Source: a virus. Taken from it: a DNA stretch of 24,302 nucleotides. Location: the IMG/VR virus record IMGVR_UViG_3300021087_000078, positions 1 to 24,302 of that record. One strand, 5' to 3'. Shown here one piece after another: positions 416-12,690 of this stretch. The notes beneath the pieces were generated by a model. The model saw only the letters and a program-made list of their open reading frames with translations, did not search any database and had not been told where the DNA came from. Numbering within the stretch: position 1 is the first letter of the stretch; each line of letters opens with the position of its first letter. The position numbers and the translations under genes are program-made.

Positions 416-1222
416 CTAAGCGGGTCGACCGTTAGTTCGACTGCCTGATACTCCTTCTATTGGAGTGCCCAGTTGAGGGGGACCACTACTAATCGGGCCA
501 GAGAGGTTCCGGTGGGGGGTGCGGAATAGCCCACCTGTAGCGGGGTTAATCGCCCCCTGAAAGTCCGCATTGGCCTCCCTCTCATCCCTCGCCTTGGCTC
601 GCGCTGCCCGCTTGCGGATCGCTCCGGGGGTCTGCGATGGCCCACTGGGTTTCTGCGGGCCGGGGTTTAGTTCGCCCATTGGGCCGGGGTTTAGTTCGCC
701 CATTGGGCCGGGGTTTAGTTCGCCCATTGGGCCGGGGTTTAGTTCGCCCATTGGGCCGGGGTTTAGTTCGCCCATTGGGCGCGGCTGCCTCGGACCTGCC
801 CATGGCTTTGGCTGCCTCGGACCTGCCCATGGCTTTGGCTGCCTCGGACCTGCCCATGGCTTTGGATTTACCGGACCGCCGGGCCCCCCCGGGCCAAGTT
901 CACCGACAGGCTTCTCCTTCTCCTTCTCCTTCTCCTCACGCCTATCTTGAACGTCAATGCCTATGTTCAGTGATGGTTTGTAGTTCCAAGACTTACTAGA
1001 GTCGCTGCCGGTACGGTCGGCTGATACCCCAGCAGAGCCACCAGAGCCCCTACCCATGACGTTGGTACCGCCCCCACCGCCGTGGCCGGAATAGGAGCCT
1101 TCTGTTAGTGAACCACCAACCGCATGGCGCATGTCCTTAGCCTGATCACGGTCAGACAGACCAGTATAGAAACCCTGACCCTGAGCGACCACGTTCTGGG
1201 GGTTGACGTATCGTGCTGCCAT
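416..1222 (-). CDS. Pro/Gly-rich protein with perfect tandem repeats, 268 aa
   Basis: Unknown protein with strong low complexity. Residues 35-75 are Gly/Ser-rich. Residues 95-104 are an alternating Glu/Lys tract. Residues 109-118 are collagen-like (GPGGPGGP). Three copies of KPWAGPRQP occupy 121-147 and five copies of MGELNPGP occupy 150-189, followed by a basic Ala/Arg helix (about 202-216) and a Pro/Ser/Gly-rich end. The repeats are identical at the DNA level, so they expanded recently or are kept identical by recombination. The ATG follows the upstream TAA by 19 bases. The extended repeat region could be a flexible linker or spacer of a virion-associated protein, but nothing in the sequence proves a structural role. 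The many open frames over the repeats arise because both units are multiples of three; this frame is chosen for its length and its non-repeat flanks. Confidence 0.75.
   Translation of the reverse strand: MAARYVNPQNVVAQGQGFYTGLSDRDQAKDMRHAVGGSLTEGSYSGHGGGGGTNVMGRGSGGSAGVSADRTGSDSSKSWNYKPSLNIGIDVQDRREEKEKEKEKPVGELGPGGPGGPVNPKPWAGPRQPKPWAGPRQPKPWAGPRQPRPMGELNPGPMGELNPGPMGELNPGPMGELNPGPMGELNPGPQKPSGPSQTPGAIRKRAARAKARDEREANADFQGAINPATGGLFRTPHRNLSGPISSGPPQLGTPIEGVSGSRTNGRPA
657..776. repeat. five perfect 24-bp tandem repeats
   Basis: Five contiguous identical copies of a 24-bp unit start at 657, 681, 705, 729 and 753, with a further four bases of the unit to 780. Read on the minus strand in the 268-residue gene, each unit encodes MGELNPGP. 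There are no spacers, so this is not a CRISPR array. Confidence 0.97.
783..863. repeat. three perfect 27-bp tandem repeats
   Basis: Three contiguous identical 27-bp units start at 783, 810 and 837. On the minus strand they encode KPWAGPRQP in the same gene as the adjacent 24-bp array, six bases away. Two unrelated units side by side suggest a slippage- or recombination-prone segment. Confidence 0.96.
911..935. repeat. hexanucleotide tract, about four units
   Basis: A run of the hexamer cttctc (plus strand) encodes the alternating Glu-Lys tract of the 268-residue protein. It is a simple-sequence tract of the kind that can change length by polymerase slippage in six-base steps, which would keep the frame. 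Confidence 0.85.
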
Positions 1223-2704: not shown

Positions 2705-3217
2705 TCACCTATAAAGCGGCAGCATATGCCGTAGCCTTGACTGCCTTTCTGGGTTGACAGGAATCTTCTCAGAGCCCGGCTGGGCCCTTCTCATGGCTTC
2801 TGCACCATTAATCTTACCATCATTAGTGAGCGAAGGAGCGTAAGTACCTACCGGTGCAAACCTCTTACCCTCAGATTCCAGTTGGATGTTGGTAAACTTA
2901 TTAAACTCTGCTGGCCACAGGTAGTCTGATGGGTTGATTCTCTCGCCCTTGTGAACACCACGACTGTACTGTCGTAGGTTCATCCGCTCAATGTGGCCCA
3001 GAATCTTGTCGGCCCGCCTGTTGCCCTCCATCGGACCCAGATAACCGTCTGGGAACTGAGTCTCTACGCCTGTGCGGTAGCCAGAGAGCAGGTAGTCCTT
3101 GGAACTACGGAAGTTCGGGGCCGGTCCTAGGGAAGCGGTGGTCGCAGCCCCCGGTGGTTCGGAGGGGCTGTTCCAGTTAGCGAATACTGCTGCGTTAGCA
3201 GAGGTGCCCTCAGCCAT
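2705..3217 (-). CDS. hypothetical protein, 170 aa
   Basis: A soluble protein starting MAEGTSANAAVFANWNSPSE. The first 35 residues are Ala/Pro/Gly-rich. A likely folded middle has many Tyr/Phe/Asn residues (DYLLSGYRTGVETQFPDGYL, IERMNLRQYSRGVHKGERIN). The end is basic (RQSRLRHMLPLYR). It contains no Cys, membrane segment or known motif. The ATG directly follows the TAA of the 100-residue gene and has GAGG six bases upstream. It belongs to the left cassette and is the one most likely to have a conserved fold, but I do not recognise it. Confidence 0.75.
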   Translation of the reverse strand: MAEGTSANAAVFANWNSPSEPPGAATTASLGPAPNFRSSKDYLLSGYRTGVETQFPDGYLGPMEGNRRADKILGHIERMNLRQYSRGVHKGERINPSDYLWPAEFNKFTNIQLESEGKRFAPVGTYAPSLTNDGKINGAEAMRRAQPGSEKIPVNPERQSRLRHMLPLYR

Positions 3218-3876: not shown

Positions 3877-4058
3877 TAGTACTTCTCCCCATCAGGGGTA
3901 GTGGGAGGCTTGTCCTCTACAGGCCTATTGGCTGTTGACCCGGGCGGGGGTCGACCGCTCTTCTTGGGTGTGGTTACTCCCATCGGGGCTGGAGTATAGT
4001 TACCGTATACCTGCCCTTTAGTCCCAGCCCTGAAGTAACGTCCCGACTTGATGGTCAC
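3876..4058 (-). CDS. basic Pro-rich hypothetical protein, 60 aa, GTG start
   Basis: A 60-residue basic protein with a Pro-rich second half (GRPPPGSTANRPVEDKPPTT). Its GTG start overlaps the preceding stop as TAGTG (4056-4060), the same junction used by the next gene. The first residues (TIKSGRYFRAGTKGQVYGN) match the start of the 118-residue protein. It is probably disordered apart from this N-terminal peptide. Function unknown. Confidence 0.7.
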   Translation of the reverse strand: MTIKSGRYFRAGTKGQVYGNYTPAPMGVTTPKKSGRPPPGSTANRPVEDKPPTTPDGEKY

Positions 4059-4264
4059 TACGAGCCCATCACCTTCAGGCCGGTCCCACCAAAGTCAGGC
4101 GAGGTGGGAGGTGAACTAGCGTGCCCAGCGGGCGTGAACGGGCGTGGCTTGCGGTTAGGTCTGTTGGTCTTTACCTTGCCACCAGCACCAGAGGACTCCA
4201 TAGAACTACCGTAGCCGTGGGGCTTCAACTGCTCCAGTGCCTGCTTCTGATTCGGGATTATCAT
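4058..4264 (-). CDS. basic Pro/Gly-rich hypothetical protein, 68 aa
   Basis: The first gene of the left cassette after the SpoVS gene. It encodes a short helical start (MIIPNQKQALEQLKPHGYG) followed by a disordered-looking Lys/Arg/Pro/Gly/Ser-rich body (KTNRPNRKPRPFTPAGHASS). The ATG lies five bases after the SpoVS stop. The leader, GGTAAGATAGTAGTATG, is almost the same as the one before the 268-residue gene. No Shine-Dalgarno sequence is obvious, so translation may depend on the upstream gene. Function unknown. Confidence 0.7.
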   Translation of the reverse strand: MIIPNQKQALEQLKPHGYGSSMESSGAGGKVKTNRPNRKPRPFTPAGHASSPPTSPDFGGTGLKVMGS

Positions 4265-4268
4265 ACTA

Positions 4269-4568
4269 CTATCTTACCACGGGCTTAAAGAACATGGCAG
4301 AGATTTGGTCCCCGTTGTCTCCTACGATGTCGTCAAAGCCTATGATATAGGATACGTCTAAGCCTCTTGGGGCCACGAAACCACGGGCGATGGCACATGC
4401 CTTCACGGCTTGGTTTACTGCACTGGCTCCGATGGCACGCATCTTTGGCGTGTGACCGGAGTTGATTGCCCGTGCGAGAATAGACCCGACACTCTGGGGA
4501 TTGCTTGACCCAGAGACCTTAACTATAGAATCAGTAGAAACTCCTGTGGTCTGGTCCTTGTCAGCCAT
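4269..4568 (-). CDS. spoVS: SpoVS-family protein (stage V sporulation protein S-like)
   Basis: A 99-residue protein that aligns along almost its whole length with the small SpoVS family. Visible landmarks are IVKVSGSSNPQSVGSILARA (about 15-34), MRAIGASAVNQAVKACAIAR (about 43-62), then GFVAPRGLDV and a closing FDDI...DQISAMFFKPVVR. The family has an Alba-like fold; Bacillus SpoVS affects septation and spore-coat assembly, and many homologues occur in non-sporulating bacteria. The N-terminus has about 14 extra polar residues. The ATG is preceded by AGGAG with seven bases of spacing. It sits between the recombination genes and the string of small proteins, so a nucleic-acid-binding or cell-division-modulating role is possible. 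Family assignment is strong; role in the phage is inference. Confidence 0.93.
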   Translation of the reverse strand: MADKDQTTGVSTDSIVKVSGSSNPQSVGSILARAINSGHTPKMRAIGASAVNQAVKACAIARGFVAPRGLDVSYIIGFDDIVGDNGDQISAMFFKPVVR

Positions 4569-4612: not shown

Positions 4613-4978
4613 TTAGGCGTACCCAGCCTCCTGTAAGAGTCGGACCACGTCGCACAACCGCATCACGGCGTAGGTATCATCCAGTGACTTGGCACCTCTC
4701 CCGGGCCTCTTGACCACCAACACAGGAACAGCATCATCCAAGCGTTCGGCCTGCTCAACCGTGTCGTCCAGCCAGCCACTGAGGTTAAACTTCTTCTGGT
4801 TCTTACATTGGATAGACACTTGGCGGTCGTTGTCTGCGTGAGCAATACCATTGATGTCCCCCGTGTCGTACCCACCAGACAGGGCCGTTCTATGTGCGTA
4901 CTGGAACCCACAATGTTGCAGGTACTCCTTTATGAGGGTCTCAAACGAGGTGCCCTTCTGCTTGGATGGATTGCTCAT
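4613..4978 (-). CDS. PD-(D/E)XK resolvase-like nuclease, 121 aa
   Basis: A small soluble protein with the layout of Holliday-junction-resolvase-like or restriction-type endonucleases. It has an N-terminal Glu in a helix (KGTSFETLIKEYL, E13), a GGYDTGDINGI segment with D38/D41, and a VSIQCKNQ strand in which Q57-x-K59 replaces the usual E-x-K. A hydrophobic strand (VPVLVVKRPG) follows. The Q variant is known in the superfamily and does not by itself mean inactivity. The ATG overlaps the upstream stop as ATGA (4975-4978). It is the second small nuclease of the module, besides the 102-residue protein. Likely role: cleavage of recombination or replication intermediates; the substrate is inferred. 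Confidence 0.75.
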   Translation of the reverse strand: MSNPSKQKGTSFETLIKEYLQHCGFQYAHRTALSGGYDTGDINGIAHADNDRQVSIQCKNQKKFNLSGWLDDTVEQAERLDDAVPVLVVKRPGRGAKSLDDTYAVMRLCDVVRLLQEAGYA

Positions 4979-5570: not shown

Positions 5571-5770
5571 GCTGGTCTGTTGTGCCATTGGCCTAAACGT
5601 GACTTTTGGTCTTCTTCTATATCGTCTTTCTCTCCACAATGTGGGCAGGAGGCTTTGAGTTGTTTCAGGTGGCTGAAGACGGGGAAGTGTGTGGATGCGT
5701 ATGACCACCAGTTCTTACATTTAGAGCAGGTGAAGTGGTGGATTGTTTCTATGGAGTAGAGGTGCGTCAT
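5567..5770 (-). CDS. mini zinc-ribbon protein, 67 aa
   Basis: The open frame reaches 5860, but the ATG at 5770 forms an ATGA overlap with the stop of the 159-residue gene and gives a compact protein, MTHLYSIETIHHFTCSKCKN onward. It contains two CxxC pairs (CSKC 15-18, CPHC 42-45) with aromatic residues between (NWWSYASTHFPVF), followed by an acidic then polar tail. This is a zinc ribbon. Its stop overlaps the start of the next mini zinc-ribbon gene. Function unknown; it is likely a nucleic-acid or protein-contact module working with the surrounding recombination genes. Confidence 0.68.
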   Translation of the reverse strand: MTHLYSIETIHHFTCSKCKNWWSYASTHFPVFSHLKQLKASCPHCGEKDDIEEDQKSRLGQWHNRPA

Positions 5771-6246
5771 GGTGCCGTCCACTGGGTTCTTCTCTCCACT
5801 GGGCTTAGGCTGATACGTCGGCTGAGTTCCCGGGATATAACATTGGCGTTCCTCTCGCACCTGTCAAACACCGTGTCCACCAACTTACGATAGGCCCGAG
5901 CCTCACGGTGGTTATCTGTGGCGTCCACTACCTCTGAGTCCACGTCCCTCCTAGCCTTGGACATGGTAACCGTCTCAGCCTTGTTCACCTTGTCATCCCA
6001 CTGTTTAATCAGAGTGGCTGCCTCAAGATGCTTTAAAGCCCCCATGGACTGCTCCTCCACTATCTCTGCCTTGGAGACCTCAGCCTTGGCGTAGTTCACC
6101 CAACTGACCATCTCGCTGTACAGAGACATAAGACTAGCGTCTGACAACTCGTCCAGATACAGGGGCAGATTCGGAATCTCGTCCCCCGGCTTCTTCGGGA
6201 AGTTGAACTTCAGGTCGAACTTCGCCTGTGACTTCGGTGTCATCAT
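5767..6246 (-). CDS. helical hypothetical protein, 159 aa, long overlap with nuclease gene
   Basis: An all-helical, charged protein. The N-terminus (MMTPKSQAKFDLKFNFPKKP then PNLPLYLDELSDASLMSLYS) leads into long heptad-like helices (about 40-135). No catalytic motif or cysteine pair is seen. The start at 6246 is supported by GGAG at 6252-6255, five bases upstream. It therefore overlaps the upstream nuclease gene by 113 bases in another frame. A later Met at 6129 would avoid the overlap but lacks this ribosome-binding site and would drop the conserved-looking start. It ends in an ATGA overlap with the 67-residue zinc-ribbon gene. It may be a partner of the nuclease; function not recognised. 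Confidence 0.75.
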   Translation of the reverse strand: MMTPKSQAKFDLKFNFPKKPGDEIPNLPLYLDELSDASLMSLYSEMVSWVNYAKAEVSKAEIVEEQSMGALKHLEAATLIKQWDDKVNKAETVTMSKARRDVDSEVVDATDNHREARAYRKLVDTVFDRCERNANVISRELSRRISLSPVERRTQWTAP

Positions 6247-7117
6247 GGTTACTCCAACATATCGTCTTGTACGTACAGTACTTACACGCCTGATGATCCT
6301 TCGTGTCTACCCAGTCCGGTCGTGGGGGTATTCTACCTTCACCTATGGACCTGAGTCCAGCATCACAGGTGGTGAGAATGTCACTAATGACTTCAGGCTG
6401 GTAGGACACCACGAACTCCTTGATGTCCTGAGAGGCTTTCCACTCGTAAATGAAGATCATCTTCTTGATACCGGTGCAGTGCATGTAGAGGGTGCCCTGC
6501 TTCAGATGCGAGAGGAACGGGCGATTGACCTCATTCCACATCTGATCGGCAGTGATCTGCTTGGTGGTGTACCTGTTGAACAGCGGGAAGTTCTCGTACC
6601 GGAAGGTACCAATACCGACACTCTTGATCTCAATCAGGTAGTCCTCGTCGTGAAGTTCCACATGACCATCGGCGTGGCCGATAATATGGTGCCCCTCATC
6701 AAAGATTGGAACCTCGTAGTAGTCCGTCTGCTTGGAGTTGCACGACTCACACACTGACTTTCCGTACCACACATTCTCGCACTCCCGGCAGTACCACTTC
6801 CCCATGAGCAGGCCCACGTCCTGAAGCCATCCCTGCCACTTACGGTGGATACGGTTGCCCTCCTCAAAGATGTTGAGGGTCTTGAACGCCTTGGGACGCT
6901 CAGGGTTGGTCTCCTTGTAGTTCATCATCCGATACGCCGACTGCCTCACACACCAGTCGCGCTTACAAATCTCACTTGGATGGAAGTGCTCTGTGTCCCT
7001 AAGAGCGTTCTTATCAGAATAGTCTTTCAATAGATGGGGGTGCAGGAGGGACACCAACTTGGCCTTGTTCTTCATTGAAGCCTTCATGGCTTCGATCTTC
7101 CAAGTATCTTCAGTCAT
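6134..7117 (-). CDS. Cas4/AddB-like PD-(D/E)XK nuclease with Fe-S cysteines and zinc insert
   Basis: A 327-residue nuclease of the PD-(D/E)XK (PDDEXK_1/Cas4-like) group. Active-site landmarks are GHAD with H147 and D150, E163-I-K165 (LIEIKSV), and Q207 in a helix. Four cysteines are arranged as in Cas4/AddB iron-sulfur nucleases: C51 near the N-terminus and C278-x2-C281-x5-C287 near the C-terminus. Between the N-terminal cysteine and the active site is an extra CREC...CESC knuckle (C110, C113, C123, C126), likely zinc-binding and not usual for the family. After C287 a 39-residue hydrophilic tail overlaps the next gene. Such enzymes resect DNA ends. Placed between RecA and resolvase-like genes, it probably acts in phage recombination or host DNA degradation. 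No Cas1/Cas2 is nearby, so a CRISPR role is not indicated. Confidence 0.87.
   Translation of the reverse strand: MTEDTWKIEAMKASMKNKAKLVSLLHPHLLKDYSDKNALRDTEHFHPSEICKRDWCVRQSAYRMMNYKETNPERPKAFKTLNIFEEGNRIHRKWQGWLQDVGLLMGKWYCRECENVWYGKSVCESCNSKQTDYYEVPIFDEGHHIIGHADGHVELHDEDYLIEIKSVGIGTFRYENFPLFNRYTTKQITADQMWNEVNRPFLSHLKQGTLYMHCTGIKKMIFIYEWKASQDIKEFVVSYQPEVISDILTTCDAGLRSIGEGRIPPRPDWVDTKDHQACKYCTYKTICWSNHDDTEVTGEVRPEVQLPEEAGGRDSESAPVSGRVVRR
6252..6255 (-). promoter_or_regulatory. ribosome-binding site inside nuclease gene
   Basis: GGAG on the minus strand, five bases before the ATG at 6246. It lies just after the last iron-sulfur cysteine codon of the upstream nuclease gene and decides the long-overlap start of the 159-residue gene. 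Confidence 0.7.
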
Positions 7118-7418
7118 CTTGTATCATCTCCAAGAAGTCGTCTTCCAATATAACTACGTAGGACCGGCCACCAAGGTCAATCTGCAACACAGGTACCCGA
7201 TCTTCCAGAATGGCCGTCCGTGCCAGTTTAACCATGTCCTGTGACTGTATAGAGTACGACTTCTTGTCCGTAAACTTGTTCTCTACGAGAAGATCAATGG
7301 TACGAACATCGTTCTTACGCACCCACCCAGCCCCAGACATGACGTTCCTACTGCCGTTGTACTTCTCCGCAGTACGCTCCTCCTGCTTCTTGGAGCGCTT
7401 GTGAATGTCGCTTGCCAT
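7110..7418 (-). CDS. small PD-(D/E)XK resolvase-like nuclease, 102 aa
   Basis: A 102-residue protein with the compact PD-(D/E)XK layout of phage resolvase-like endonucleases. It shows an N-terminal helix with Glu (KKQEERTAEKY, E13/E14), a SGAGWVRKNDVRT turn with D37, a LLVENK strand with E46-x-K48, then FTDKKSYSIQ and a helix. C-terminal strands (VPVLQIDLGG, SYVVILEDDF) complete a small alpha/beta fold. The start follows a 50-base gap after recA, one of the longest gaps here, with GAGAGA upstream. It overlaps the Cas4-like nuclease start by eight bases. Likely role: branched-DNA cleavage. A second small nuclease (121 residues) lies 2.4 kb downstream, so roles may be divided. Confidence 0.8.
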   Translation of the reverse strand: MASDIHKRSKKQEERTAEKYNGSRNVMSGAGWVRKNDVRTIDLLVENKFTDKKSYSIQSQDMVKLARTAILEDRVPVLQIDLGGRSYVVILEDDFLEMIQDD

Positions 7419-7468: not shown

Positions 7469-8494
7469 CTACTTGTTGTCTAGCATCCCCATCAACTCGT
7501 TTCTCAGGCTGTCCTGCATGTCTAGGTCGGCTCGGACTGCGGCGACAGCCTTGTCCTTGCCCTGCCACTTGTCGTCTTGGTATGAGTAGAACGCACCGGC
7601 TCTGGTGATCACGTCAGAGGCGATGGCGATGTTGACCATGTCCTTGACCGTGTCAAAGTCACCCATGTGAAAGCCGACACTGTGTGCAAAGTAGAAGTCC
7701 ACCACGGCCTGCTGCTGTGGTCGGTACGTCTTGTTCTTGATAGTACGACCCTTGATGGTCTGACCGACAGCCACCTTCCCGTCCTTGAGCCACTCGTCCT
7801 TCTTCACTTCTACTCGGGTGAAGTAGTGGAAGTTCTTGGCCTTTCCACCGGGGGTGGTTCGTGGGTCACCCCACATGACGCCTATCTTGTCCCTCCACTG
7901 GTTGATGATTAGTCCCGTGCATCCACGCTCTTTCTCTATCAACGACCTGCGCTGGGCCTTGGAAGACTTGCGAAAGAACTTTCCGGTGAGGCGAGCACCC
8001 AGCCCAACGGTGAACTCGTCCATGCTCTTCTCGTACTCGGTCTCCGGCACTAGTGCAGGCAGAGAATCCAGCACAACACAATCCACGGCTCTGTTATCCA
8101 TGGACCGGATGACTAGGTCGTAGGCGCTCTCCATGACGTTGGTCTCCACGACCCACAGGCGGTCAAGGTCTACTCCAATGGACGCCGCATACTCAGGCAC
8201 GTACTCCTCGGCAGCAATCCACAGGGCAGTCCACTTGGGGTCCAGCGCTTGGTTTGCAGCGATGGTCTTGTATGCAATCGCAGTCTTGCCAGAGGACTCG
8301 TCACCAACTATCTCAGACCATTGGTTTACAGGCCATCCCCCGCCCAGCATCATGTCAAAGGCAAGTATCCCGGTAGTGATGCGGGGTAGTTCATCAGTAA
8401 CCCTACTACCCTTGACAACTATGTCCTCGCCATGCTGCTTGTTTATAGATTTAACTATCTCGTCAATGCTTTCGTACTTCGTGTTAGTGCTCAA
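7469..8494 (-). CDS. recA: RecA-type recombinase
   Basis: A 341-residue RecA/RAD51-superfamily ATPase. The Walker A is GDESSGKT at 64-71 (the bacterial consensus is GPESSGKT). A Glu-rich strand follows (WIAAEEYVPEYA). The Walker B is VDCVVLDSLPALVP. The L1/L2-type segment NQWRDKIGVMWGDPRTTPGG parallels the RecA NQIRxKIGVMFGxPETTxGG motif. The C-terminus is short and helical, without the long acidic tail of bacterial RecA. The start is TTG at 8494 with AAGGA about ten bases upstream; no better in-frame start precedes it. Role: strand exchange and recombination-dependent replication or repair of the phage genome. Next downstream are resolvase-like and end-resecting nucleases, which fits a recombination cassette. 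Confidence 0.93.
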   Translation of the reverse strand: MSTNTKYESIDEIVKSINKQHGEDIVVKGSRVTDELPRITTGILAFDMMLGGGWPVNQWSEIVGDESSGKTAIAYKTIAANQALDPKWTALWIAAEEYVPEYAASIGVDLDRLWVVETNVMESAYDLVIRSMDNRAVDCVVLDSLPALVPETEYEKSMDEFTVGLGARLTGKFFRKSSKAQRRSLIEKERGCTGLIINQWRDKIGVMWGDPRTTPGGKAKNFHYFTRVEVKKDEWLKDGKVAVGQTIKGRTIKNKTYRPQQQAVVDFYFAHSVGFHMGDFDTVKDMVNIAIASDVITRAGAFYSYQDDKWQGKDKAVAAVRADLDMQDSLRNELMGMLDNK

Positions 8495-8947: not shown

Positions 8948-9439
8948 CTAAACTGCTTCCTTCTTTAAGAGGTCCCTTACCTCAATGAGGTCTTCATCAA
9001 GCAACTTCGACACGGAGGATACCATACACCCAAGGAGTGTGTTGTAGGTTGATTCCTTAATCTGCTGGTGTATCCGCTTAAGATCAGCGTAGGTGAGGTT
9101 GGCAAAGTCCATTGGACCCTCTTCGCTATAGAACTCATCTTCAGGGGCGTCCATGTCCACGCCGATGGAAACAATATCGGTATCTTCCCCTTCAGGGGGA
9201 AGCATTTCGTCGGCAACCATCACGTCAGCCATCCAGTCGGCTGCATCTGACAGGGAATCCACGATGCCATAGTCGGTTAGTATAGCCCAACTACGAAGAA
9301 CATCCCTCTCCTCCTCTTCGTATACCTCTGCCGAAGACGGGTAGAAGCCTCTACAAGTAGCGATCTCCTGACCGTCAGGGGGTGACAGCATTAAGTAGAA
9401 GTTACGCTTGGCGGTAATCAGTTCGTTATCGCAGTCCAT
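8948..9439 (-). CDS. acidic hypothetical protein, 163 aa
   Basis: The frame extends to 9460, but the ATG at 9439 overlaps the polymerase stop as TAATG with AGGG just upstream, so it is chosen. The protein (MDCDNELITAKRNFYLMLSP onward) is strongly acidic, with a Glu/Asp-rich middle (EVYEEEERDVLRSWAIL, LPPEGEDTDIVSIGVDMDAP). A helical C-terminus (LKRIHQQIKESTYNTLLGCM) ends in an amphipathic EVRDLLKKEA segment. There is no known motif. Being coupled to the DNA polymerase gene, it could be a polymerase or replisome accessory, which is inference only. Confidence 0.75.
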   Translation of the reverse strand: MDCDNELITAKRNFYLMLSPPDGQEIATCRGFYPSSAEVYEEEERDVLRSWAILTDYGIVDSLSDAADWMADVMVADEMLPPEGEDTDIVSIGVDMDAPEDEFYSEEGPMDFANLTYADLKRIHQQIKESTYNTLLGCMVSSVSKLLDEDLIEVRDLLKKEAV

Positions 9440-11559
9440 TAACCCTTTGCCTCCGACCATGTCGATCCAGAATGTGCAGAAACCACCAGTGGTACATCGT
9501 GCAGAACCCTGCCGTGGCCCATTGCTTCAGTGACAACCTCTGAATAATAGTCTACCTGATCTTCGTCAGGTACGCTAACCACCAACTCGTCGTGAACCTG
9601 CACCAACACCTTTCCCCCAAACTCAGAAACCGCTGGGTGTACCTTCAGCATGGCCTTCTTACAGATGTCGGAAGCACTTCCTTGAACCACTGCGTTGACA
9701 GCCTGCCTTTCAGCCCGGGAACGCAGGTCATCCTTGGATGAGTTTATGTCTGGAAGCCTTCTCCTGCGGCCAGAGATGGTTGTCACATAACCTTCGCGCT
9801 TGGCCCTAGACACCACCGATGACTTCCACTTACCCAACCCACTAAACTGTTCGTAGTACTGGTCTATTACTCCCTTGGCCTTACTCAGAGTAATGCCGGT
9901 GGTAGCAGACAACTTCCCTGCCCCTCCACCATAGGCGGTGAGGAAGTTAGCGGCCTTACCTATCTGCCTTTCCTCACCAGATACCTCAGAGGGGTCCTTA
10001 TCGAAGAGTAACCCCGCAGCACCCGCATGAATGTCAATCCCGGTAGTGAAGATTTCCATCATGTTAGGGTCCTTACTGAACATGGCCATTACCCTAAGTT
10101 CGATCTGATCGTAGTCAGCCACAACTAGGTGACCACCGTCGTCGGCACGGAACAGCCCACGCACACTGGTATCCCGTGGGACATTTTGCAGGTTGGGATC
10201 AGAAGATGACAGCCGACCAGTAGCCGTCCTGTGCAGGTGAAAGTTAGGGTGCAACCTACCGTTGTTAACCTTTTCTATCAGGCCATCCACATAGGTTGAC
10301 TTCAACTTCTTGTACTCTGCCCAGTTCAAGAACAAGGGAATAACTGCGTGCCTGTGTGAGATCGCTTTTAGTGACTCGTTGTCTACTGAAGCCTGACCCT
10401 TCTCCGTCTCCTTCTGTGGCTTCAAACCCAACCCACCCTCAGACTTCTTACCAAACAGGAACACCCTCTTGTCCTTGACGGAGTCTGGGTTGAAGCCGGG
10501 GTAGGTGGAGGCAATAATCTCTGTATAGGTATCCTCCATCTTGAAGTCCAGTTCTTTACCAAGTAGGGTGAGTCCGTTTGCGTCGATGGCCATACCAGCG
10601 TCCTCCATGGACATGAGCACCGACAGTACCTTGGTGTCCTGATCAAACACATTCAGAAGGCTTGCGTCCCTGTTGATGTGCCTCATCAGTCTCCGGTAGA
10701 GCATCCACGTCCACCGAGCGTCTAGATGTACGTACTCACACGCCACAGAGAAGGGGGTGGTAGATATGACTGCACCCACCTTGCCGTGCCTAGCATAAGG
10801 ATCGTGCTTTCCGAAAGCCTCACTGATCAGCGAAGTCAGGCGAAAGGATGAAATGTTCTCGTCAAGTACATGCTGTGCCAGCATGGTGTCGTGTAGTGGT
10901 CCCGTCGGGATAGAACCGTAGTACTTGGCAATGGACCTAGCGTCGAACTTGACGTTGTGGCCAACCTTGATGAGGCCTTCGTCAAAGAAGAGGGGACGCA
11001 ATGTATTGAACACCTTAGTCCTATCCAACTGGACAGGAGGGTCAGAGAAGGTAGCAGGCACGACGTACCTAGCCTTGGCCACGGACTCCTGACCACTCTT
11101 TAGAACCTTGCGATAGCCGGTGGGGGGTACCGTAGACCCATCCCCCCGTTCCTCTGGGGTTAGGACCTCACCGCAGGGGTGACCCACGGGTATAGCCCAT
11201 GATTTACCATGAGTGGCCAACCCGATCCATATTATTTCGTTGCGCTTAGGGTCCAGAGCGATGGTCTTGGTCATCGACTGCTCCTTGACTGCCCGAGTCC
11301 TATTAATGTTGGCCTCGTTCTGGACAGCGAGGCCGTCTACGTGGGAGGTCACCTGCTGGTCTACCCGACTGGAGAGGTCAGGGTGGTGTTCAAGCACCCC
11401 GACCGTCTCCACGTCGAATGCGAATGCCCCCTGAGACTGTATCTCAGAGACCAAGTCGTGGACCTCCGACAGGGAGGACACGTGGTGGGAGCCGGAGCCA
11501 AGGAGAGAGGACAACGCCCGACTCCCACCAGTGCCTTTAGGCGGCTCCGATGTCTTCAT
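9439..11559 (-). CDS. polA: family A DNA polymerase with 3'-5' exonuclease
   Basis: A 706-residue replicative polymerase counted from the ATG at 11559 (the open frame reaches 11613 but overlaps the SSB gene more). Exonuclease motifs: FAFDVET (D49, E51), VGHNVKFDA, and CEYVHLDARW. Polymerase motifs: A, LVVADYDQIELRVMA (D482); B, RQIGKAANFLTAYGG with R531, K535 and F539; C, QVHDELVVSV (H656, D657). F539 corresponds to E. coli Pol I Phe762. There is no 5'-3' nuclease domain, as is usual for phage polymerases. Between Exo I and the next strand lies an insert of about 50 residues (roughly 55-105) rich in charged and polar residues. Role: phage genome replication with the helicase, primase and SSB encoded just upstream. 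Its stop overlaps the next start (TAATG). Confidence 0.96.
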   Translation of the reverse strand: MKTSEPPKGTGGSRALSSLLGSGSHHVSSLSEVHDLVSEIQSQGAFAFDVETVGVLEHHPDLSSRVDQQVTSHVDGLAVQNEANINRTRAVKEQSMTKTIALDPKRNEIIWIGLATHGKSWAIPVGHPCGEVLTPEERGDGSTVPPTGYRKVLKSGQESVAKARYVVPATFSDPPVQLDRTKVFNTLRPLFFDEGLIKVGHNVKFDARSIAKYYGSIPTGPLHDTMLAQHVLDENISSFRLTSLISEAFGKHDPYARHGKVGAVISTTPFSVACEYVHLDARWTWMLYRRLMRHINRDASLLNVFDQDTKVLSVLMSMEDAGMAIDANGLTLLGKELDFKMEDTYTEIIASTYPGFNPDSVKDKRVFLFGKKSEGGLGLKPQKETEKGQASVDNESLKAISHRHAVIPLFLNWAEYKKLKSTYVDGLIEKVNNGRLHPNFHLHRTATGRLSSSDPNLQNVPRDTSVRGLFRADDGGHLVVADYDQIELRVMAMFSKDPNMMEIFTTGIDIHAGAAGLLFDKDPSEVSGEERQIGKAANFLTAYGGGAGKLSATTGITLSKAKGVIDQYYEQFSGLGKWKSSVVSRAKREGYVTTISGRRRRLPDINSSKDDLRSRAERQAVNAVVQGSASDICKKAMLKVHPAVSEFGGKVLVQVHDELVVSVPDEDQVDYYSEVVTEAMGHGRVLHDVPLVVSAHSGSTWSEAKG

Positions 11560-12181
11560 TGACAAGGGAAACCATGTCCTCGTAGGTAGACATTCGGATG
11601 ATGTCAGCGTCATAAGACTTGGTCAGGAAGCGCTCCAGAGAGTCCTCAGACAACTCCTCCATACCCCACTCGTCTGAAAGGTCTCGTGCCTTGATTAGCA
11701 GGTGGTTGTACTGGGTCTGTGGGCCAGTACCTGAGCGACTGACGGCCCAGTAATGCTTGGACAGGGGACCCTGCCGGTCGTCCTCGTTGAAGTTCCTCAA
11801 CGTGGCGATGACCCGGGTACCGGCCTCGTATGACCTGAGTACTGGCTCCTCACCACGCTCCAGAAGGAGCACGTTGAAGGCGAACAGCGGACGTGGGCGA
11901 TTGCCTGCGTCGCACAGTGGACACCCACGGTCGTCCATGCCTTCTCGGCACACGAAAGACTTCTGACCAGTCCGATTGACCCAGTGCTGCCTCCACGATG
12001 CGTAGGGAGCATCCTGAAGGAACTTGATGAGGACAGGCTCTGGCCCGGTCTTGAGGCGAACGGCGTAGTTTGCGTCCTCCTGCTTGATCGTGTCCACAGC
12101 ACCCCACCCTGACCGGATGATCTTGCGAGTCTCCGGTTCCGCTTCTGCGGTCGTTTCAGGTACTTCGTAATCCAACGGCAT
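11537..12181 (-). CDS. gp32-like zinc ssDNA-binding protein
   Basis: A 214-residue single-stranded-DNA-binding protein of the kind seen in T4 gp32 and in actinophages. A zinc site H66, C78, C87, C90 (QHWV...SFVC...GCPLC) matches the His-Cys-Cys-Cys order and nearly the spacing of T4 gp32. The surrounding KFLQDAPYASWRQHW and FAFNVLLLERGEEP segments form the OB-fold core. It ends in NEDIGAA, without the long acidic aromatic-ended tail typical of gp32 and T7 gp2.5. The ATG follows a 20-base gap after the MerR-like gene; its last 23 bases overlap the proposed start of the polymerase. Role: coats ssDNA at the fork and during recombination. Confidence 0.87.
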   Translation of the reverse strand: MPLDYEVPETTAEAEPETRKIIRSGWGAVDTIKQEDANYAVRLKTGPEPVLIKFLQDAPYASWRQHWVNRTGQKSFVCREGMDDRGCPLCDAGNRPRPLFAFNVLLLERGEEPVLRSYEAGTRVIATLRNFNEDDRQGPLSKHYWAVSRSGTGPQTQYNHLLIKARDLSDEWGMEELSEDSLERFLTKSYDADIIRMSTYEDMVSLVNEDIGAA

Positions 12182-12201: not shown

Positions 12202-12690
12202 TTACACCGGCCAGTTGCTGGCGGTGTGTTCCTTAAAGCCGACCCAGTCGGCCTTCTTACTGATGTTGAGGTTATACGCCTCAACCGCCAAAAGCAAGAA
12301 CTCTACTTGCTCCCGGCTGTACAGGCGACGACCCTTGGGCTCGCCTGACAACTGTTCCCCACGGGGAGGGGGTGTACGGTAGTTGGCCTGTGGTATCCAC
12401 CCATTGCGTTCCCACATGCGAATGGTTACTGGCTTCCTGCCTAGAACCTTGGCTAGTTCTCCAATGGGGTAGAACGTCCTAAGTTCTCCTGCCACCCTGT
12501 ACACCTTGCCACGTCGTAAGTCTTCCTCTCCAAGGAGGGCTGTCTCCGGTCTAGGGCTATCTTCCCGATTCTTAGGAGGGGTCCCACCCGGATAATCAGG
12601 AATGTCAGACAACTTACCTGCGTCGTCGTCGTCAGTTAGGTGGGAGTGGTCCCTGTTCATAAGGTCATGGAAGTATTCCTTCGCACTCAT
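12202..12690 (-). CDS. MerR-type helix-turn-helix protein
   Basis: A 162-residue protein with a disordered acidic N-terminus (about 1-60; HSHLTDDDDAGKLSDIPDYP) and a MerR-like winged helix-turn-helix at about 72-150. The latter reads TFYPIGELAKVLGRKPVTIR, then MWERNGWIP, then GRRLYSREQVEFLLLAVEAY; the RRLYSREQVE segment is the MerR wing. No effector-binding domain or cysteine sensor follows. The start overlaps the stop of the 137-residue gene (ATGA, 12687-12690). In the middle of the replication genes it could be a regulator of this operon, or an origin- or genome-binding factor. It is alike in type to small MerR-type proteins common in actinophages. Confidence 0.85.
   Translation of the reverse strand: MSAKEYFHDLMNRDHSHLTDDDDAGKLSDIPDYPGGTPPKNREDSPRPETALLGEEDLRRGKVYRVAGELRTFYPIGELAKVLGRKPVTIRMWERNGWIPQANYRTPPPRGEQLSGEPKGRRLYSREQVEFLLLAVEAYNLNISKKADWVGFKEHTASNWPV

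What the first reader, a model, noticed from the sequence alone, without database searches (positions are those of the whole stretch)
4269..4568. A SpoVS-family gene inside a phage recombination/structural boundary
The protein matches SpoVS over almost its full length (VNQAVKACAIARGFVAPRGL is nearly identical to the family core). SpoVS is known from bacterial cell-division and sporulation control and has an Alba-like, potentially nucleic-acid-binding fold. Here it lies after RecA- and nuclease-type genes and before a string of small basic proteins. It could modulate host septation during infection or bind phage nucleic acid; its phage role is not established as far as I know.
Basis: partly seen in the sequence, partly recalled or inferred. 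Interest (0 to 1): 0.75.

Follow-up and report, generated by a model that had tools for sequence, protein, structure and literature searches.

The report
Actinophage SpoVS gene beside DNA resolvase
The gene is a genuine relative of the bacterial protein SpoVS, but in this large group of viruses of Actinobacteria it is a fixed part of the virus's own DNA-recombination gene cluster, always near a Holliday-junction-cutting enzyme, in viruses whose known hosts have no SpoVS of their own, so the published label 'sporulation gene' is probably wrong for these viruses.

Summary
Observation confirmed: 4269-4568 on the MINUS strand encodes a 99-aa SpoVS protein (PF04232, E=8e-20; AlphaFold model Z 15.8 to T. 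thermophilus SpoVS, about 10 to Alba). SpoVS in phages is already published, as a sporulation 'auxiliary metabolic gene' in soil and ocean viromes. That reading does not fit here. All 215 sampled loci of this phage lineage have a Holliday-junction-resolvase-type nuclease 5' of SpoVS (199 within 250 nt, 16 further off), of three unrelated folds: Hjc-like PDDEXK (145, plus the window), RuvC-like (64) and endonuclease VII (6). On a RecA tree the resolvase type changed at least three times while SpoVS stayed. In RecA-selected loci (RecA at least 47% identical, enough sequence) SpoVS is present in 18 of 18. WhiB in 41/50 records points to actinobacterial hosts; in class Actinomycetes only 2/395 genomes have SpoVS, both prophage copies of this cassette. 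Phage SpoVS is split from cellular SpoVS (100/100), under purifying selection, with a fixed Q-to-R change in strand beta-2. Best reading: a core phage Alba-fold protein acting on recombination/replication intermediates with the resolvase (inferred; no biochemistry). An acidic beta-3/beta-4 hairpin argues against Alba-style DNA binding. Septation control of the host is unsupported.

The parts
4269..4568 (-). SpoVS-family protein, 99 aa, actinophage-specific clade
   Evidence: Pfam/PHROG/PDB, model and fold search, tree
4613..4978 (-). PDDEXK nuclease, Hjc-like / 'RusA-like' Holliday-junction resolvase type, directly 5' of SpoVS (44-nt gap)
   Evidence: PF24608 and PF04471, phrog_244 E=1e-25, profile's best PDB hits are Hjc resolvases, E=0.005; present 5' of SpoVS in 80/80 close relatives
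6134..7117 (-). Cas4/RecB-like exonuclease
   Evidence: phrog_2506 E=6e-32, phrog_1990
7110..7418 (-). second Holliday-junction resolvase-type protein
   Evidence: phrog_2002 E=3e-20
7469..8494 (-). RecA/UvsX-type recombinase
   Evidence: PF00154 E=3e-50, phrog_97
5767..6246 (-). conserved small protein of the cassette, function unknown
   Evidence: found in 76/80 close relatives and most distant ones; no PHROG hit
9439..11613 (-). family A DNA polymerase with 3'-5' exonuclease
   Evidence: PF00476 E=4e-106
11537..12181 (-). probable ssDNA-binding protein
   Evidence: phrog_14578 E=5e-6
4058..4264 (-). small basic protein 4 nt 3' of SpoVS, poorly conserved
   Evidence: ORF; hits in 8/80 relatives only
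2705..3217 (-). conserved protein downstream of SpoVS in this phage lineage, function unknown
   Evidence: 64/80 close and many distant loci; no family hit

Best explanation
SHOWN: the gene is a SpoVS-family, Alba-fold protein that is a vertically inherited core gene of a large group of actinobacterial tailed phages. It sits in the operon-like cassette RecA - resolvase - (WhiB) - Cas4-like exonuclease - Holliday-junction resolvase - SpoVS. INFERRED: it is a phage DNA-transaction protein made together with the resolvase. It binds recombination or replication intermediates (branched or single-stranded DNA, possibly RNA) through the basic beta-2/alpha-2 face, perhaps as a dimer like Alba, and helps present or protect branches before the resolvase cuts them so that concatemers can be resolved and packaged. 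Because three unrelated resolvases occupy the same slot, it more likely acts on the shared DNA substrate than as a subunit fitted to one nuclease. It is not a sporulation or septation gene borrowed to act on the host's SpoVS pathway.
For: Resolvase-type nuclease 5' of SpoVS in 215/215 lineage loci (199 within 250 nt; 42/42 after 85% dereplication): PDDEXK 145, RuvC 64, EndoVII 6, with PHROG or Pfam confirmation of each type and Hjc as best PDB hit of the PDDEXK type. At least 3 switches of resolvase type on a RecA tree. SpoVS in 18/18 RecA-selected loci with RecA at least 47% identical. WhiB in 41/50 records. SpoVS in 2/395 Actinomycetes genomes, both prophage copies of this cassette, against 93/101 in the phylum of Clostridium. 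100/100 split of phage from cellular SpoVS. Purifying selection, median pN/pS 0.20. Fixed Q44 to R, near-fixed R68, beta-2 charge +1 to +2 against -0.9 in cells. Alba-family structural matches including DNA and RNA complexes, Z 9-10. Cellular spoVS also lies 3-6 kb from recA in 33/75 loci.
Against: No biochemical evidence that any SpoVS binds nucleic acid was found. The beta-3/beta-4 hairpin, basic in Alba (+2), is acidic here (-4), so Alba-style groove insertion is unlikely. Adjacency can persist by shared descent: the lineage is related and the module conserved, so resolvase swapping shows a fixed slot for a resolvase, not contact with SpoVS. In 16 loci RuvC is further off, with small genes between it and SpoVS. 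'RusA-like resolvase' rests on homology; the Hjc match is weak (E=0.005). The window's own host is not known directly.
Confidence: 0.5

Rival explanations
1. Sporulation/septation auxiliary gene: phage SpoVS imitates host SpoVS to alter septation, sporulation or dormancy during infection, as proposed for soil and marine viromes.
For: Published assignment of spoVS as a viral sporulation AMG (PMC6172770, PMC8940887); the phages also carry WhiB, a septation/sporulation regulator family; phages with cellular-type SpoVS exist, all without a detected resolvase upstream (33/33).
Against: Streptomyces-type hosts belong to a class with no SpoVS except prophage copies; phage SpoVS forms its own clade; it is a core gene tied to the recombination cassette.
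Confidence: 0.13
2. RNA-binding or translation/transcript regulator: an Alba/IF3-C-like fold protein that controls phage early/late mRNA, placed at the boundary between recombination and lysis/late genes.
For: Alba-family matches include RNA complexes (3wbm, Rpp20/25) and IF3-C; cellular spoVS lies just after ymdB (27/75); SpoVS is the last well-conserved gene before variable small genes.
Against: Nothing ties it to RNA genes in phages; the conserved partners are DNA nucleases and RecA.
Confidence: 0.17
3. Protein adapter: SpoVS is a non-nucleic-acid-binding partner of a metal-dependent nuclease or phosphoesterase, as suggested by the B. subtilis YunD-SpoVS cross-linking model.
For: 9a7h (YunD-SpoVS) is the top structural hit; acidic hairpin.
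Against: It coexists with three unrelated nuclease folds, so one conserved interface is hard to picture.
Confidence: 0.12
4. Virion or packaging-associated DNA-condensing protein whose position next to the resolvase is merely inherited synteny.
For: Alba-type fold; followed by small basic proteins.
Against: No recognised structural gene adjacent; the gene directly downstream is not conserved.
Confidence: 0.08

Closest known systems
Cellular SpoVS (PF04232; B. subtilis SpoVS, T. thermophilus 2EH1/2EK0)
   Same: Profile hit over the whole domain, fold Z 15.8, invariant G47-A48, N52-Q53, K56, A59, F78; cellular spoVS also lies near recA in many genomes
   Different: Separate clade with 100/100 support; Q44 (all sampled cells) is R (all sampled phages); R at 68; I/V instead of R/K at 89; linked to a resolvase
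Phage spoVS 'auxiliary metabolic genes' of soil and OMZ viromes; PHROG_35646
   Same: Same protein family annotated in viruses
   Different: Here shown to be a core recombination-cassette gene, in phages whose tested host class has no non-prophage SpoVS; whether the published viral spoVS genes belong to this clade was not tested
Streptomyces phage BRock gp51 and LuckySocke gp174
   Same: Same lineage; SpoVS directly after a RuvC-like resolvase
   Different: RuvC instead of the PDDEXK resolvase; 42-44% identity to the window protein
Archaeal Alba (Sso10b and relatives)
   Same: Fold, Z about 10; basic residue on strand beta-2
   Different: About 17% identity; acidic instead of basic beta-3/beta-4 hairpin

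Membership tests
SpoVS (PF04232) | Profile match above gathering score over most of the domain | tested here: met
   70.8 bits vs 24; profile 2-79 of 83
SpoVS (PF04232) | Alba-like SpoVS fold as in 2EH1 | tested here: met
   model pLDDT 89; Z 15.8, rmsd 1.2 A over 85 residues
SpoVS (PF04232) | Invariant core residues G-A..N-Q..K..A | tested here: met
SpoVS (PF04232) | Role in stage V sporulation / septation | not testable with these tools
   no experiment; hosts' class lacks non-prophage SpoVS
Sporulation AMG (host-derived, host-acting) | Homologue present in the host and phage copy nested among host sequences | tested here: not met
   2/395 Actinomycetes genomes, both prophages; phage copies form a separate clade. 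Window host itself inferred only from WhiB in relatives
Alba nucleic-acid-binding family | Alba fold | tested here: met
   Z about 10 to 1h0x, 3toe, 1nfj
Alba nucleic-acid-binding family | Sequence-level family membership | tested here: not met
   Pfam scan returned only SpoVS at E<=0.001; hhalign to Sso10b E=0.24
Alba nucleic-acid-binding family | Basic beta-3/beta-4 hairpin used for DNA binding | tested here: not met
   net charge -4 against +2 in Sso10b1
Alba nucleic-acid-binding family | Measured DNA/RNA binding | not testable with these tools
   needs EMSA

The most novel reading that the evidence does not exclude
Phage SpoVS is a resolvase-independent accessory factor for Holliday-junction or fork processing, kept while the resolvase itself was replaced at least three times; and the cellular SpoVS, which lies a few kilobases from recA in many genomes, has the same ancestral role in DNA recombination, its sporulation phenotype being secondary.
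Probability: 0.2. Interest if true: 0.85.

Novelty: new variant of a known kind. Interest (0 to 1): 0.55.

Why it matters
SpoVS is widespread in bacteria, yet I found no established biochemical role for it. A phage lineage that keeps it as a core recombination gene, away from any sporulating SpoVS-bearing host, gives a concrete and testable hypothesis for the whole family. It also warns that viral 'spoVS' calls in metagenomes should not be read as evidence that phages steer sporulation.

Tried and rejected
(1) + strand reading of 4269-4568: stops, rejected. (2) Host-acting AMG: host class lacks SpoVS outside prophages. (3) Three of the 11 GenBank 'phage' hits probably do not inform on phage SpoVS: MT835471 and MT836246 have the cellular ymdB-spoVS arrangement, and TS-12 has bacterial-type neighbours and a SpoVS of Bacillota type. 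(4) Lysinibacillus phage LysYB1 as scan query found nothing in IMG/VR. (5) Sequence-level Alba homology: not significant (HMM search of the PDB with the SpoVS profile returned only SpoVS and one chance hit). (6) Search for papers joining SpoVS with actinobacteriophage, or sporulation protein S with phage and resolvase: none relevant. (7) Promoter/terminator scan around the gene: promoter matches little above shuffles, terminators below. (8) Six loci without PDDEXK or RuvC were not exceptions; they carry endonuclease VII.

Full report
THE GENE. Window 4269-4568, minus strand, encodes a 99-aa protein that begins at an ATG preceded by AGGAG. It matches Pfam SpoVS at 70.8 bits against a cut-off of 24, PHROG_35646 'sporulation protein' and T. 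thermophilus SpoVS in the PDB. An AlphaFold model from 58 phage and cellular sequences (pLDDT 89, pTM 0.77) matches solved SpoVS at Z 15.8-16.3 and Alba proteins at Z about 10. The gene is under purifying selection: median pN/pS 0.20 in the close clade; synonymous sites are near saturation, so this is indicative. The window is an IMG/VR virus record of 24.3 kb.

WHAT IS ALREADY KNOWN. spoVS has been reported in viral contigs from permafrost-peatland soil and a marine oxygen minimum zone and read as a sporulation auxiliary gene (PMC6172770, PMC8940887, PMC9765229). SpoVS has been placed in the Alba superfamily by HMM and structure comparison (PMC11621453). So neither 'SpoVS in a phage' nor 'Alba-like' is new.

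NEIGHBOURHOOD. The window reads, in transcription order, SSB-like, PolA, RecA, resolvase-type protein, Cas4-like exonuclease, small conserved protein, PDDEXK nuclease, SpoVS, small basic proteins. Recognisable baseplate genes are at the far end. In 80/80 of the closest IMG/VR relatives the PDDEXK gene is directly 5'. A scan with Streptomyces phage BRock SpoVS gave 80 more loci and a scan with cellular SpoVS gave 48 more of the same lineage. Counting all 215 lineage loci, every one has a resolvase-type nuclease upstream, 199 of them within 250 nt: PDDEXK 145, RuvC-like 64 (16 of them further off, within 3 kb), endonuclease VII 6. After dereplication of SpoVS at 85% it is 42 of 42. The PDDEXK profile's best PDB hits are archaeal Hjc resolvases, weakly (E=0.005). 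On a RecA tree the resolvase label changes at least three times. This shows that the slot keeps a resolvase function while the protein is replaced, with SpoVS constant; it does not prove that the two act together, because the loci share descent. In contrast, 33 phage loci with cellular-type SpoVS (mostly Bacillota-like) had none of the three nucleases upstream by the same models, which may miss distant forms.

IS IT CORE? To avoid choosing loci by SpoVS, I selected by the window's RecA: of loci with enough downstream sequence, 18 of 18 with RecA at least 47% identical carry SpoVS; the 3 without have RecA of 32-41% identity. Several of the 18 contigs were also in the SpoVS-selected set, so the samples overlap although the selection differs.

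HOSTS. WhiB, an actinobacterial family, is in 41 of 50 records of the lineage, and the isolated members with a resolvase infect Streptomyces. In class Actinomycetes 2 of 395 genomes carry SpoVS above the cut-off; one of these was the genome used as centre of the sample. Both copies, and three more found by scan, lie in prophage-like loci with the same cassette. Other actinobacterial classes do carry SpoVS (94 of 296 in a phylum-wide sample) and so does the phylum of Clostridium (93 of 101). The window's own host is inferred only as an actinobacterium, not to class.

EVOLUTION AND SURFACE. Phage SpoVS (window clade, other actinophages, prophages) and cellular SpoVS are split by a 100/100 branch; Lysinibacillus phage SpoVS and three doubtful 'phage' records fall on the cellular side. 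The tree has few columns, so finer order is unsafe. Position 44 is R in all sampled phages and Q in all sampled cells; position 68 is R in nearly all phages; strand beta-2 has net charge +1 to +2 in phages and -0.9 in cells. The beta-3/beta-4 hairpin is acidic in both, unlike Alba.

MECHANISM. Shown: family, fold, core status, cassette, host-class distribution, separate clade. Inferred: nucleic-acid binding on the beta-2/alpha-2 face and action on recombination or replication intermediates together with whichever resolvase is present. I put this at 0.5. RNA regulation, host septation, a protein adapter and a packaging role remain as rivals. It is of interest that in 33 of 75 cellular loci recA lies 3-6 kb upstream of spoVS and in 27 of 75 ymdB is next to it, a hint, no more, that the recombination link is older than the phages.

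VERDICT. What is new here, as far as the searched library shows, is that this SpoVS is a distinct, core, resolvase-linked phage protein rather than a borrowed sporulation gene.

Noticed in passing
MW302330 (Stenotrophomonas phage TS-12), L084; L283-L290: TS-12's SpoVS and neighbours (lipase-like protein, HD phosphohydrolase, ABC transporter, monooxygenase) look like a Bacillota element and resemble SpoVS of isolate-derived viral contigs L283-L290; the named Stenotrophomonas host is doubtful.
   Followed up: partly
MT835471 and MT836246, L086 and L088: Faecal 'Bacteriophage sp.' scaffolds carry the chromosomal ymdB-spoVS arrangement and are probably bacterial chromosome.
   Followed up: partly
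window 416-1222 (-): ORF with perfect protein-level tandem repeats (PMGELNPG, PKPWAGPRQ; DNA arrays 657-780 and 783-865, 100% matches), no family hit.
   Followed up: no
cellular loci L176-L250: recA lies 3-6 kb upstream of spoVS in 33 of 75 loci and ymdB directly upstream in 27 of 75.
   Followed up: partly
window 12202-12690 (-): MerR-type helix-turn-helix protein inside the phage replication cluster.
   Followed up: no
L282-L313: A second set of viral contigs carries cellular-type SpoVS with no resolvase found nearby; these may be the true host-acting cases.
   Followed up: partly
L171-L175 (Nonomuraea, Herbidospora, Terracoccus, two Streptomyces): Actinobacterial genomes with prophage-like elements carrying much of the recombination cassette (exonuclease, RuvC, SpoVS; RecA in three).
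   Followed up: partly
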